Assembly (NCBI RefSeq): GCF_010015585.1
Contig: NW_022985091.1
Span: 14,138 to 78,137, forward strand
From: Eremomyces bilateralis CBS 781.70
Taxonomy: Eukaryota; Ascomycota; Dothideomycetes; Eremomycetales; Eremomycetaceae
Length of the DNA: 64,000 nucleotides
Reading direction: 5' to 3'
Part shown: positions 1-4,512 of the stretch, in pieces
How positions within the stretch are numbered: the stretch's first letter is position 1
Layout: every line of letters begins with the position of its first letter
The notes under the pieces: generated by a model
Told to the model about the DNA's origin: nothing
The model's database searches: none
Seen by the model: the letters and a program-made list of their open reading frames with translations, nothing else
Program-made: the position numbers and the translations under genes

Positions 1-2177
1 TGACCGTCCCGTCGTGCGAGCCCGACGCCAGCGTCTTGCCGTCCGGCGAGAAGGCCACGGCCGAGACCCCGCTCGAATGGCCCTCGAGCGTCTGCAGCAC
101 CGCATTCCATTTCTCTTCGACCTGTAGTAACCTCCGTATCCATCTAGGTATGCAATTTGCGAATTGCTTTCTTATTATGCTCATTGTCGGTGCGAATGCG
201 AGGGCACTGCAGTACGTCTGAAGGGGAGCTAACCCGATAGCGTATCGATTGTAGACCACGAACCGCTTCGCCTCATAGATGATATCTGAGAGGCTAGGAC
301 AGTCACTTATCTAGTCGAAGTCTTAGCGAGATTATATACTATGCCGGAGGTATAACTAACGGAAGCAAGCGACTCTAAAGACGCGATGGTATGAATTCCT
401 TCCGATACCTGCCCCATCCATCCGAGAGTTTCGAGCCAGTGGAGGAAATGCTCTTGTAGGAAACGGTGTACTTGGTCGCCATCTTGAAGCTTGGCCTCGC
501 TTCTCTGGAGATGCTGGATCCAATATAGACATGCATACCGAACCTCAGGAGGGAGATGCTGCGCTGTAAGACTAGTTTCAATATCAGTCACTAATGCTCC
601 TGGTCGGTCCACACTAAGAATATCTTGCTTAAGAGCACCAGACATAAGCTTAATGCAGCTTGTAGCGAGTGATTTATGTGCTTGCTTCTCGTCAATCCCA
701 ATTTTCAAATCTGTACATCTCTTTGGGTCAAGGAGGAAGTCGCGGAACGATGGATGATGTAAACGCAGCGGCTGAGTCGAATTCTTTGGAACGTCCAGAA
801 TCGCATGAAGATCGTTCAGTGTTTGGTCTAGTTGTTGTAGCGTACTGTCGAGCGTAGTATCAAGCGTAGCGTGGAGTAGTTTCCCCAATGAGTCGGTGGA
901 TAGAGGAGAATAGAGGACAGCAATGGTCCCCATGGTTGTTCCAAGTCGCTCGCGCCATTTCTTGCTTTCTCGCCCCCTGTATTTTCGGATAGACTTCTTG
1001 AGAATTGTGATGTAGATGTTGTCCAGGTGCTGTTGTGGAGCTACTACAGGATCGCCATTCTTGTTATCTGTCGCGGAACTATCTGAAGACGACCCGTCTC
1101 CCGAGTCATCCGCAGAGTCAGGCTTGAGGATTATAGATATTCGATCTGCAGCAAAGTATTCGCCCTCCTCGATAAAGCGACATGCAGTTGCCGCCCAGAT
1201 GAATAGCTCATTTGCACTGTCAACGAGTTGACCAATGATATGCTCGTCAGGCCAACCAGCAGGGAGACAGTACCTACGAGCAATGTCTTCAAGCTTGTGC
1301 CGTAAGAAAATGCGGATATCATGATCGACAATCGACGACGATATTTCGTGGAGTATAAAATCCCGGTGTACAACATTTGGGATTTGGATGAAGCCGTTTC
1401 GGATCGGAACGTCAGGTCGGCTGGTTAAGAATACTCGAAGCTGGACCGTCTCTAAGGACCGAACCTCCGCTAGCAATTGTAAAATAGTCTGGATGTCGTT
1501 CTCGTCCTCGCACTCATCAAGCGCATCAACGACAAGAATATATCGGGGTTGGCTGCTGCTGCCCGCCAGCTGCGACAATGGATTAAGGACCAGATGGCGC
1601 CATTGTTCACTTAGATCCCGGTTGGCAATGTCGCTCTGGGCGGAAATCGCGTTGCAAATGATTCGTTTCAGATCCGGTACTTTGTTTGCCAGTTGTACTG
1701 CAACGCTTGTAACAAAATTACCGGCATGGCCGACATCTCCGCCGCCTCTTGAGAAGAAGAAACTAGCACCAAGGGTTTCCTTCGCCGGGTTCGCCCAATA
1801 CCTAGACACTGTTCGCGCCACCGTGGACTTGCCCGTGCCAGCCAAACCGCTTAGCCAAAAGATGCTCGGCGAATTTTCTCCCTTTACCCAGTTGTCTATA
1901 TCTTCACGGAGGCCGACGCGGGTATTGTCAAGGCAGGTCGGGTCATGTCGTCGCTGGTGTGCGTAGAACGGTGCGTCCTTCGCGGTAGGGAGGGAGCCGA
2001 GTATATCGTTCAAGTCTAGACTTGCCATTTAGCTTCCTGATGCTTCGAGCCCACAGCCAGTTAAGTACACTCACCTTTACTGGCCCCGACGTTCACAGAT
2101 CCGTGGAATTCATTATTACCAGCGATAACCAGCGAACCGTCCTTGGCGGTCGCATCGCTGATACGTTGCTGAGCCAT
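1..2177 (-). CDS. NLR: N-terminal amyloid-like motif, NACHT, WD40 (partial)
   Basis: STAND/NLR-type signalling ATPase, cut by the window edge. I read three exons: 2177-2075, 2015-361 and 310-<1, with introns of 59 nt (GTGAGT...CTAG) and 50 nt (GTTAGT...GCTAAGA...CTAG); phases close (103+1655 nt = 586 codons). Exon 1 alone encodes 34 residues starting MAQQRISDATAKDG and holds a HET-s-like amyloid motif candidate (residues about 6-31). The NACHT ATPase follows, with Walker A GLAGTGKST at about 91-99 and Walker B ILVVDALDECED near 195. Exon 3 continues through an AKRFVVYNR stretch, usual in this family just before the repeats, and enters a WD40 repeat (EGHSSGVSAVAFSPDG). Fungal NLRs of this type sense non-self through the repeats and trigger cell death. 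The ATG at 2177 is chosen because the in-frame TAA just before the exon-2 ATG shows that the downstream ATG is not needed and that splicing joins the exons. C-terminal repeats lie outside the window. Confidence 0.85.
2118..2162 (-). other. amyloid-motif candidate of the NLR (exon 1)
   Basis: Encodes ISDATAKDGSLVIAG, residues 6-20 of the NLR, followed by NNEFHGSVNVG. The spacing of hydrophobic, Gly and Asn residues resembles the HET-s-related amyloid motifs (for example the SRVLIGNEYGG stretch of HET-s). The same ungapped 15-residue window in the neighbouring Helo-like protein is ISDVTADGHSVVIAG: 10 identical residues. That it forms amyloid is inference. Confidence 0.6.
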
Positions 2178-3321
2178 GAGCTTGGAGTAACGATGCTAAA
2201 TCTTTCGCCCTGCTAGTAGTTATTGATCTCTCGTTGCGAAATGCGAATACTGCGGCGTACGTGCGCAAGGAAACATTCTGGAGTGAGTCCATATCTACAT
2301 AGTATACCTACCCCCAGGTCACATGTGAGGTTCATTCTCAGCTGGCGAATGCATTCCGCCAGCCTCGCCAATGAACGAGCTTGCCTTGCCGCTGTCGGCT
2401 GCTGGAGAAATGCATCGGTTGCAGCCTGTAGAGTGCAGACCAAGTTGGATGCCAAGATCATTTCGTGAATACGCCGACACGGAGAAGGAGAAGGGTGGCT
2501 AGTGGCTACCCACTTTTTCGGTGTAGATCCCTTTATCTGACCAATGGAACTGAGCAAAGAGAAGGCTCTGGCGGGCTGGCCCCAATTGTTGAATCTGTAG
2601 ATTCTGTACGGAGGTGTTACCGACTTACCATACTGGCGGACGGGCTGTACCGCAGCTAGCCCAATCCATGTGGATCAGTCATTCCTCTCAGCCTTGAGCC
2701 TTGCAAAAAATAAAAGTCGGTCCCTACTCCCTGCAAGTTCCATAGCCAAATCATCTCATCCACACCGAGATACTTACTCGAGAGCCGAGTTATTCTCGCA
2801 TTGGCATAGTATATGATTCCATGGTTGATGGCAGCAAAGGTCTGGCCATTGTTGCGGACGTTTTGCTGATACTGCCTTGCTGGACGCAGTAAGGCGTAGT
2901 AGGTAAGGCATAACTGAAGCTGCTCTGGTGGGGCAAGGGTCCGCTGGACATTGGGTGCTAGTGCTGCCATTGCTACCATTGCTACTATTGCTTTATTAAT
3001 TATAACCAATTATTGAAAAAGTCTGGGACGCTCAGCAATACAATCTCATATTCGCCTTGATAAGTACTCTCGAGGTACTGTACTGCGTGGTAATTATATC
3101 AACGAACAAATTCAGGGTTTGGCAAATGGCATCTTCAAGTGGTCACGCCAATATGCGCGATGATTTGTCACAACACACGAATTGCGCCTCACTGAACCGC
3201 AGTCTTTTACTGCCCCGCATATATGGTTCATTGTTTCCTTTGTGTTTTAACCACTACCTCCTCTCCTTTCCCTTGGTTGAACCCATTAACTAGTCGATTC
3301 CTTTCCAGTGTTCGTTTAGTC
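2178..3321. promoter_or_regulatory. divergent intergenic region between NLR and Helo-like gene
   Basis: About 1.1 kb separating two divergently transcribed genes. Short minus-strand reading frames (2213-2557, 2656-3009) show no domain or splice support. It presumably carries both promoters; a pyrimidine-rich stretch lies at about 3224-3310, just upstream of the ATG at 3322. No repeat or RNA gene seen. Confidence 0.5.
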
Positions 3322-4275
3322 ATGCCGGAACCTCTTAGCATCACTGCGGCTGTTGTAGGCATTACAGCCACAGCTCTCCAGAGCGTTCAATTTCTCGCCA
3401 AGACCATCGACAACATTAAAGACGCCCCAAGAACCGTCAAATTCATCAGCGCCGACCTTCGCGCAGTTGAGAGTGTGTTGCAGGATCTGGAAGTACAAGC
3501 CGATTCACCGCAACCCATTCAGAGTAAGCAAATCGGGCCTGCTGTCGAGAACTGTGACAGAGCATGCAAAGCATTTCAGTTGCAAGTCGAGCATTGGATG
3601 AACCGTTCCAAAGACGACAAGATGTTTTGGGTCTCTCGGTGGAGGGTTGGACTATTTGGGCAGGAGAGGATCAAGACATTCAAAGGGCAGCTTAGCGACT
3701 GCAAAAGCACTCTTAGCGTCGCACTGGCTACGGCAACTCTGTTTGTTTACCGACAGCCTTTCAGCCTGCCAATAGCTGACTGATTGAGTAGCTTAGCTGT
3801 AACTAGCCAAAAGGACCTGGCGAAAGAGCAGAGAGACAGCATGCTAAGGGTAAACGAAGCAGACCTTGCGCAAGAGCTTATTAGTGCAGGCAATGAAGGG
3901 GTGGAAATTGAGCGCAATCTGCAACAACTCATAGTTAGAGGAAGCACCGAGCCGGACGAGGAATCCGAGCAGAGCAAACAGGAGCTTCTCCAAGAGCTTC
4001 GGAGACAGCAAGCCGGCAACAATACCTTCAGAGAGATGTGTGAGGAAGCCCTTTCCAAAACAGTGTATGAGCGTACAGGGCAGAAGATCAAAGGTGTCAA
4101 GGCAACAAACAATAGTTCAGCTGTGACGGGATTCATCAACACTTCTGGGGAAGAGTCAAAGATCGATCAGGATATCTCTGATGTTACTGCTGATGGCCAC
4201 AGCGTGGTCATTGCTGGGGTCGTGAAGGGCTTCGATTTCAAGGACTTGCGTCTAGGTAAGCCTGGGGGTTCTTAA
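3322..4275 (+). CDS. Helo-like N-domain protein with C-terminal amyloid-like motif; putative NLR effector partner
   Basis: Starts MPEPLSITAAVVGITATA, the typical opening of the fungal Helo_like_N / STAND N-terminal family (PF17111, also named for azaphilone cluster protein L). An intron at 3741-3791 (GTTTGT...GCTGAC...GTAG, 51 nt) joins exon 3322-3740 to 3792 onward in phase. The middle is a charged, probably coiled-coil region (residues about 155-235). The C-terminus has two motif-like stretches: VKATNNSSAVTGFINTS, then ISDVTADGHSVVIAG (residues 268-282), which matches the NLR's first exon. Read without a second intron it ends at 4275 (300 aa). A good donor at 4256 (GTAAGC) and acceptor at 4327 would instead give a 355-aa form ending at 4512 with a low-complexity hydrophobic tail. 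By analogy with HET-s/NLR pairs it would be a membrane-targeting cell-death executor; that function is inferred. Confidence 0.75.
4174..4218 (+). other. matching amyloid-motif candidate of the Helo-like protein
   Basis: Encodes ISDVTADGHSVVIAG near the C-terminus, followed by VVKGFDFKDL. Identical to the NLR exon-1 motif at I, S, D, T, A, S, V, I, A and G (10 of 15, no gaps). Synonymous codons differ, so this is protein-level similarity rather than a recent DNA copy. Confidence 0.6.
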
Positions 4276-4512
4276 GGAGATGTCGGCAGAGGATATGGGG
4301 TTAGCAATTTTGACTTACTGTATCTAGTGGACCGGCGTAACGCAGACATCGACGTGGACTATGTCGATCTAGGATTCCCCTTTTCCATCATGATCATCCT
4401 CTCTTCAAAGTTCGAACAAATGCTATTAAGACTTATGACGCATTCGCAGAGTCTGTCCAGTGTTGATGTCTTTCTGTTTGAGTTCAACCATTCAAAGTGC
4501 CGCCGACAATAA

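What the first reader, a model, noticed from the sequence alone, without database searches (positions are those of the whole stretch)
1..4512. Candidate NLR/effector prion-signalling pair
Seen: a NACHT-WD40 gene and a Helo-like-domain gene lie head to head. The NLR's first 34 residues and the neighbour's C-terminus share ISD-x-TA...S-x-VIAG (10/15 identical, no gaps). Known: in fungi, NLRs with an N-terminal amyloid motif often sit beside a HeLo/HELL/lipase effector carrying the same motif at its C-terminus; the motif passes the activated fold and triggers cell death (HET-s/NWD2 model). Inference: this is such a pair, with a motif of the HET-s-related class and a PF17111-type effector domain, a less studied combination.
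Basis: partly seen in the sequence, partly recalled or inferred. Interest (0 to 1): 0.88.

Follow-up and report, generated by a model that had tools for sequence, protein, structure and literature searches.

The report
Fungal sensor–killer pair sharing amyloid motif
Two neighbouring fungal genes, an immune-type sensor and a probable cell-killing protein, carry matching short amyloid motifs, so the sensor can probably switch the killer on by prion-like templating; this is a well-made new example of a known kind of system.

Summary
The finding holds up. The window is from Eremomyces bilateralis CBS 781.70 (exact protein match). A NACHT-WD40 NLR gene (-, from 2177 past the window start) and a 300-aa HeLo-like (PF17111) gene (+, 3322-4275) lie head to head. 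A profile of effector C-termini has one significant PDB hit, 6EKA, the amyloid domain of Podospora HELLF (E 1.9e-4; 0.26 without the lead-in to R1). AlphaFold2 draws R1 and R2 as matching beta rungs. The genome also holds a second, paralogous pair, a third effector, two effector remnants and, in all, 13 R0 exons, each 256-280 bp before a NACHT exon. At strand 3 the motifs fall into two matching classes; full-length scores are mixed. Best reading: an HRAM signalosome of the NWD2/HET-S and FNT1/HELLF kind, in which NLR activation folds R0 and templates R1/R2. Amyloid formation and cell death are inferred. HRAM with PF17111 is already described: a new member, not a new kind. Most notable are the 13 R0 exons against three intact-looking effectors.

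The parts
1..2177 (-). NLR gene A (R0 - NACHT - WD40), 5' part; continues past the window start
   Evidence: Spliced model; same N-terminal 689 residues in database model P0113
2075..2177 (-). NLR exon 1 (34 codons + 1 nt), encodes MAQQRISDATAKDGSLVIAGNNEF...
   Evidence: P0113 has the same exon
2112..2174 (-). R0, HET-s-related amyloid motif (residues 2-22 of the NLR)
   Evidence: coordinates; Q at motif position 3, I at 5, G at 19
2016..2074 (-). intron 1, 59 nt, GTGAGT...TAG
   Evidence: agrees with P0113
361..2015 (-). NLR exon 2; NACHT/NPHP3_N (PF24883) at 1417-1905
311..360 (-). intron 2, 50 nt
   Evidence: agrees with P0113
1..310 (-). NLR exon 3, start; first WD40 repeat at about 1-100
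2178..3321 (.). divergent intergenic region
3322..4275 (+). HeLo-like effector gene A, 300 aa, equals P0001 (P152DRAFT_403517)
3741..3791 (+). effector intron, 51 nt
   Evidence: the resulting protein equals P0001
3328..3996 (+). HeLo-like (PF17111, PigL_N) domain, residues 3-208, with the intron inside
   Evidence: E 2.3e-26; helical in AlphaFold2
4075..4137 (+). R1, first HET-s-related motif (residues 235-255)
4138..4161 (+). 8-residue loop between R1 and R2
4162..4224 (+).
4225..4272 (+). C-terminal tail with aromatics and glycines (KGFDFKDLRLGKPGGS)
   Evidence: sequence; less conserved (0.39 against 0.63-0.73 for R2 and R1)

Best explanation
This is an HRAM-type amyloid NLR signalosome. 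The WD40-NACHT receptor senses an unknown trigger through its WD40 repeats and oligomerises. That brings its N-terminal R0 motifs together, and they stack into a beta-solenoid amyloid. This template converts the R1-R2 tail of the neighbouring HeLo-like protein, whose helical domain (HELLF/MLKL type) then goes to the membrane and kills the cell. Shown here: the gene pair, the three motif copies, their family kinship, a paralogous pair, and two motif classes that match at strand 3. Inferred: oligomerisation, amyloid folding, templating, membrane attack, and a role in immunity or allorecognition.
For: R0/R1/R2 fit the published HRAM layout (G19, hydrophobic core, Q3; two repeats with an 8-residue loop in a HeLo-like protein of at most 310 aa, one at the NLR N-terminus). 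The profile of 28 effector C-termini (69 positions) hits the HELLF amyloid 6EKA at E 1.9e-4, next hit 0.84, with R1 and R2 both in register; the 49-row full-length profile has the same top hit at 0.03. AlphaFold2 of the tail gives R1 strands 10-12, 15-17, 22-25 and R2 strands 39-41, 44-46, 51-54, i.e. motif positions 3-5, 8-10, 15-18 in both. Mean identity to the query over 62 rows is 0.73 in R1, 0.63 in R2, 0.60 in the effector domain. Motif position 14 is S in both repeats in 37 and G in both in 21 of 58 rows, never mixed, by two joint changes on a tree. Of 11 residues shared by R0 and R2, 3 use the same codon, so it is no recent DNA copy. Among 62 R2s the window R0 scores best (tied) with its own neighbour's. 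A second pair and 11 further R0 exons before NACHT matches lie in the genome. Effectors B and C: dN/dS 0.25 over 305 codons.
Confidence: 0.85

Rival explanations
1. A true HRAM pair by descent, but the window's NLR is decayed, so that effector A is no longer driven by its neighbour and instead answers to other R0-bearing NLRs of the genome.
For: The database model P0113 is only 721 aa and ends in an arginine-rich stretch that reads like WD40 codons out of frame (by eye), against 1,295-1,296 aa for NLR B. R0 exons of unlinked NLRs resemble R1_A (the commonest type: score 42, 10 identities) more than the window's own R0 does (16, 5).
Against: The 689 residues readable in the window are open, with clean introns. 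The break lies where the sequence could not be read and may be an assembly or repeat-collapse artefact.
Confidence: 0.2
2. The shared peptide is a chance or compositional resemblance.
For: Short peptides; 18 of 20,000 shuffles reach the score against the whole effector.
Against: A third copy (R1), the HELLF hit, a paralogous pair, and 13 of 13 R0 exons in the same place before NACHT matches. An HRAM pattern finds exactly R0, R1 and R2 in the six frames of the 64-kb window, and 1 hit in all in 60 Markov controls; the pattern was written after seeing the motifs.
Confidence: 0.01
3. R0, R1 and R2 are homologous but act as an ordinary, non-amyloid beta docking tag between receptor and effector.
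For: No experiment here shows amyloid.
Against: Sequence kinship with HELLF, whose tail is a solved amyloid and forms a prion in vivo (PMC7885112 passages); joint change of R1 and R2 at position 14.
Confidence: 0.07
4. The HeLo-like domain has another output (for example scaffolding or enzyme regulation) rather than membrane killing.
For: Pfam now names PF17111 after a pigment-cluster protein, PigL; no toxicity was tested.
Confidence: 0.08

Closest known systems
FNT1/HELLF of Podospora anserina (HRAM5)
   Same: HeLo-like effector with C-terminal R1-R2, adjacent NLR with N-terminal R0; significant profile match of the C-termini to the HELLF amyloid 6EKA
   Different: FNT1 is NB-ARC/TPR (PMC7885112 passages), here NACHT/WD40; the 6EKA row has Q at motif position 18, the window motifs R0, R1, R2 have A, T, A
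NWD2/HET-S of Podospora anserina (HRAM1)
   Same: NACHT-WD40 NLR with N-terminal R0 beside an effector with two C-terminal repeats
   Different: HET-S has a HeLo (PF14479), not a HeLo-like domain; no PF11558 match here
HRAM2 subfamily (Daskalov 2015, PMC4518210)
   Same: Q at motif position 3 (60 of 62 R2 and 58 of 62 R1); double motif in HeLo-related proteins
   Different: Not compared with the published HRAM2 sequences, which were not available; in the window pair R0 is nearer R2 (11 identities) than R1 (5), whereas the paper reports the opposite trend for HRAM2

Membership tests
HRAM amyloid signalosome (NWD2/HET-S type) | effector of at most 310 aa with HeLo, HeLo-like or SesA domain | tested here: met
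   300 aa; PF17111 E 2.3e-26
HRAM amyloid signalosome (NWD2/HET-S type) | two imperfect 21-residue repeats at the effector C-terminus, loop of 6-18 residues | tested here: met
   R1 235-255, R2 264-284, loop 8
HRAM amyloid signalosome (NWD2/HET-S type) | G at position 19, hydrophobic 5, 8, 10, 16, 18 | tested here: met
   G19 in 62 of 62 R1 and 61 of 62 R2; window R0 I,A,A,V,A; R1 I,V,A,A,T; R2 I,V,A,V,A (T at 18 of R1 is the one exception)
HRAM amyloid signalosome (NWD2/HET-S type) | preferred R or K at position 15 | tested here: not met
   L, S, V in R0, R1, R2; in the paper a preference, not a defining rule
HRAM amyloid signalosome (NWD2/HET-S type) | adjacent NLR with one copy of the motif at its N-terminus | tested here: met
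   R0 in exon 1 of the divergent NACHT-WD40 gene; in the paper 98 of 155 have it
HRAM amyloid signalosome (NWD2/HET-S type) | R0 resembles the repeats of its neighbour | tested here: met
   11 of 21 identical to R2; own R2 ties for best of 62
HRAM amyloid signalosome (NWD2/HET-S type) | R0 changes together with its cognate R1/R2 (co-variation) | tested here: inconclusive
   Positions 15-18 of R0 and R2 match by class in 9 of 9 R0s compared. Full-length R2 scores of NLR B and of C20:293k, and R1 scores of two of three B-type R0s, do not follow the class. Not testable across species
HRAM amyloid signalosome (NWD2/HET-S type) | homology to a solved HRAM amyloid | tested here: met
   6EKA E 1.9e-4 with the lead-in to R1, E 0.26 with the two motifs and loop alone
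HRAM amyloid signalosome (NWD2/HET-S type) | fold of the R1-R2 model matches the solved beta-solenoid | tested here: inconclusive
   matching rungs in AlphaFold2, no Foldseek or VIA match
HRAM amyloid signalosome (NWD2/HET-S type) | peptides form self-seeding amyloid; R0 triggers effector killing | not testable with these tools
   needs bench work
HRAM1 (canonical HET-s, PF11558) | match to PF11558 | tested here: not met
   not among the families matched by any of 28 C-termini; no match over cut-off in the genome
HRAM2 | Q at position 3 and clustering with published HRAM2 repeats | tested here: inconclusive
   Q3 met; clustering not tested, published sequences not at hand
MLKL-type four-helix executioner domain | fold of the N-terminal domain | tested here: inconclusive

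The most novel reading that the evidence does not exclude
The genome runs a branched amyloid network with two channels: executioner A, with a V-V-I-A-G strand 3, may be fed by the window NLR and up to nine unlinked NLRs, while executioners B and C, with A-A-V-G-x-F, are fed by up to three NLRs. Many sensors would converge on a single killer through near-identical R0 motifs, with strand 3 of the motif acting as the channel code.
Probability: 0.3. Interest if true: 0.6.

Novelty: new member of a known kind. Interest (0 to 1): 0.38.

Why it matters
It adds a clean pair to the HRAM signalosomes and places a widespread HeLo-like family in that class: one search lists homologs from Lophium, Cadophora, Alternaria, Apiospora, Aspergillus, Talaromyces and others. 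The value lies in the genome: two paralogous pairs plus 11 further R0 exons before NACHT genes give natural sequence variation with which to ask which residues decide whether two HRAM motifs cross-seed, and whether many receptors can share one executioner.

Tried and rejected
Rejected: chance resemblance; a recent DNA copy (3 of 11 shared residues use the same codon); effector end at 4512. Tried without gain: charge complementarity as a register test (not register-specific); a PDB search with the single-motif profile A1 (one hit, E 1.2, unrelated); Foldseek on both models and VIA on the tail model; protein searches for NLR relatives (4 hits including the window's own, of 107 candidates; 2 hits including the query's own gene, of 38 candidates). 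By eye none of the other-species hits shows an R0 (P0114, P0116, P0118 have other N-termini, P0115 is a fragment). Candidates were limited by length and by shared words, so this does not show that other species lack R0. R0/R2 co-variation across species and gene neighbourhoods in other fungi could not be tested. Dropped rows: of 112 effector hits all 62 of at least 250 aa were aligned (the window's own protein is one of them); 58 of 62 had both repeats ungapped; 49 of 112 went into A2, 41 of 112 into A4 and 26 of 112, plus effectors B and C, into A5 and A6. The motif pattern was written after seeing the motifs; together it missed 4 of the 13 R0 exons (C3:1110k, C3:182k, C1:520k, C4:690k), which were read by tblastn. 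That 11 R0 exons lack an adjacent effector rests on the genome list of PF17111 (11 rows, six frames, lower bound); 3.8-4.2 kb on the upstream side was read for 6 of these 11 and showed no paired effector repeats (one lone pattern hit in L059 taken as chance).
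Full report
WHERE IT IS. The effector translated from the window equals, over all 300 residues, a deposited hypothetical protein of Eremomyces bilateralis CBS 781.70 (P0001, P152DRAFT_403517). The window is part of contig C25 of a 26.6-Mb assembly, G000. The first-stage coordinates are right apart from the end: the effector stops at 4275.

ANATOMY. On the minus strand, exon 1 (2177-2075) encodes MAQQRISDATAKDGSLVIAGNNEFHGSVNVGASK; after a 59-nt intron comes exon 2 (2015-361) with NPHP3_N/NACHT (PF24883 E 3.8e-31, PF05729 E 3.8e-9), a 50-nt intron (360-311) and exon 3, where a WD40 repeat begins before the window ends. 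The database model P0113 uses the same splice sites. On the plus strand, 1,144 bp away, the effector has two exons (3322-3740, 3792-4275), a HeLo-like domain (PF17111 E 2.3e-26; SesA E 1.1e-4, below its cut-off) and a C-terminal tail with two motif copies, R1 TGQKIKGVKATNNSSAVTGFI and R2 IDQDISDVTADGHSVVIAGVV, 8 residues apart. R0 against R2: 11 of 21 identical; R0 against R1: 5; R1 against R2: 6.

CHANCE AND ORIGIN. Shuffling both peptides reaches the observed local score in 4 of 20,000 trials; shuffling R0 against the whole effector in 18 of 20,000. Of the 11 shared residues of R0 and R2, 3 use the same codon, and the two shared serines use different codon families, so the likeness is kept at protein level and is not a recent DNA copy.

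FAMILY OF THE MOTIF. I read the paper that defines HET-s-related amyloid motifs (PMC4518210; parts 1-4 of 5). It lists G at position 19, hydrophobic residues in general at 5, 8, 10, 16 and 18, a class-specific residue at 3 (Q in HRAM2), two repeats in the effector with a loop of 6-18 (154 of 155 cases), and one copy in the adjacent NLR (98 of 155). The window fits these points; the preference for R/K at 15 is not met. A profile of 28 C-termini of the effector family, 69 positions, hits one PDB chain significantly, 6EKA (E 1.9e-4, next hit 0.84), with R1 on R1 and R2 on R2. About ten bits of this come from the lead-in before R1: cut to R1-loop-R2 the profile still has 6EKA on top, at E 0.26. 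So the tail as a whole is kin to 6EKA, while the motifs alone do not prove it. That 6EKA is the ssNMR amyloid of HELLF is recalled; the entry's molecule name gives Podospora anserina chromosome 3, and the HELLF amyloid structure is described in PMC7885112 and PMC7889193 (passages). PF11558 does not match (28 C-termini). By Q at position 3 without Q at 16 or 18 I place it nearest HRAM2, untested against the published repeats. The papers label the Podospora HeLo-like motif HRAM4 (2015 text) or HRAM5, so class numbers should be used with care.

CONSERVATION. In the 62 hits of at least 250 aa (of 112; the query's own protein included), mean identity to the query is 0.73 in R1, 0.63 in R2, 0.60 in the HeLo-like domain and 0.39 in the tail. 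Among 58 rows with both repeats ungapped, position 14 is S/S in 37 and G/G in 21, never mixed; on a tree of the first 220 residues this is two joint changes, too few for a sign test. Charges at equal positions of R1 and R2 are mostly opposite (80 against 1), but shifted registers can be as lopsided, so this is no evidence for the register.

THE REST OF THE GENOME. A genome scan for PF17111 gave 11 rows. Three intact-looking effectors carry R1-R2: A (window), B (C2, start 1043601, minus) and C (C15:715-1692, plus). B lies head to head, 415 bp away, with NLR B (C2:1044017, plus), annotated as P152DRAFT_454640 with the R0 exon (P0117, 1,295 aa), NACHT and 13 WD40 stretches. Two effector remnants lie at C15:73.3k (frame broken inside the tail) and C3:977k. 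Effectors B and C differ with dN/dS 0.25 over 305 codons, 0.5 over the last 66 (two or three codons at the exon-2 start may be intronic). R0 exons: 12 matches plus the window's make 13. Aligned on G19, 11 of 13 have Q at position 3; C24:287k has P, and C3:1110k has an extra residue that moves Q by one. All 13 lie 256-280 bp upstream of a PF24883 match on the same strand. The weakest is C4:690k (E 0.054). Two of the 13 have an adjacent PF17111 effector in the list; 11 do not. At least two of the 11 (C24:287k, C15:440k) look broken: their NACHT-WD40 matches change frame more often than the introns of NLR B explain.

CO-VARIATION. R0 exons fall into a V-V/I-A-G group (window A; C16:550k, C32:20k, C2:438k, C20:293k, C1:2228k; C3:1110k), looser variants (C3:182k, C1:520k, C4:690k) and an A-A-V-G-T-F group (NLR B, C24:287k, C15:440k). 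Effector A has V-V-I-A-G-V-V, effectors B and C have A-A-V-G-V-F. In the four residues at positions 15-18, the six V-type R0s compared share 2-3 with effector A's R2 and 0 with B's and C's; the three B-type R0s share 3 with B and C and 0 with A (9 of 9). Other comparisons are mixed. Over 21 residues the R0 of NLR B scores 33 with R2 of A, 32 with B and 38 with C, and C20:293k scores 35, 30 and 36. Against R1, NLR B (28 with A; 20 and 19 with B and C) and C15:440k (34; 17 and 20) prefer effector A; C24:287k prefers B and C (18; 30 and 25). B-type copies are paralogs, and so are the V-type ones: this is two classes, not nine independent cases. Co-variation across species could not be tested.

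HOW IT MOST LIKELY WORKS. By analogy with NWD2/HET-S and FNT1/HELLF (PMC7885112, PMC7889193, PMC5485727; passages): receptor oligomerisation, R0 stacking, templating of R1-R2, activation of the HeLo-like domain, cell death. The sequence evidence supports the wiring; the physics is inferred. The confidence for the best explanation is 0.85, down from 0.87 in the draft, because the motif-only profile match is not significant.

NOVELTY. PMC9815663 (outline, passages, sections 6 and 27) states that HRAMs occur in NLR N-termini and in HeLo and HeLo-like (PF17111) C-termini of adjacent genes, and notes suspected signalling between non-adjacent genes, with a mean receptor-to-effector ratio of 5.7:1 for another HRAM class; PMC7889193 mentions predicted branched pathways (passage). 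So this is a new member of a known kind. I found no description of it for Eremomyces: 7 held papers contain the word (search listing only), none on this subject by title.

Noticed in passing
G000 genome; R0 exons at C16:550k, C32:20k, C2:438k, C3:1110k, C3:182k, C20:293k, C1:2228k, C1:520k, C4:690k, C15:440k, C24:287k, C2:1044k, C25 (window): Thirteen R0 exons before NACHT genes against three intact-looking HRAM effectors: an expanded sensor set, 11 of 13 without a PF17111 effector beside them in the list.
   Followed up: partly
L025 (C2:1041225-1041872, +) beside pair B; L061 (C1:521797-522864, -) beside an R0-NLR; L026 (C15:3772-4653, -) near effector C: Open frames that look like Tc1/mariner or DDE transposases lie near HRAM effector or NLR copies, which may explain their spread (judged by eye, no family search).
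   Followed up: no
L027 (C15:73347-73748, -) and L044 (C3:977299-977385, -): Remnants of two further HRAM effectors, the first with its frame broken inside the tail.
   Followed up: no
L001/L002 (C23:64113-67125): Two PF17111 genes in inverted orientation within 3.1 kb; no HRAM pattern in their loci.
   Followed up: no
L043 (C15:440.4k): The R0 exon there starts with a partial tandem repeat (VSGVSTN...IRGVSTNN), as if the motif had begun to duplicate.
   Followed up: no
effector tree: E. bilateralis effector A falls in a 24-row group (SH-aLRT 100, quick tree) with Cadophora, Mollisia, Lophium and Apiospora proteins and apart from Alternaria, Pyrenophora and Phaeosphaeriaceae ones, although Eremomyces is a Dothideomycete (recalled): perhaps old polymorphism or transfer.
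   Followed up: no
C2:1279808-1279945 (L057): Sub-threshold PF11558 match (E 0.09), not examined.
   Followed up: no
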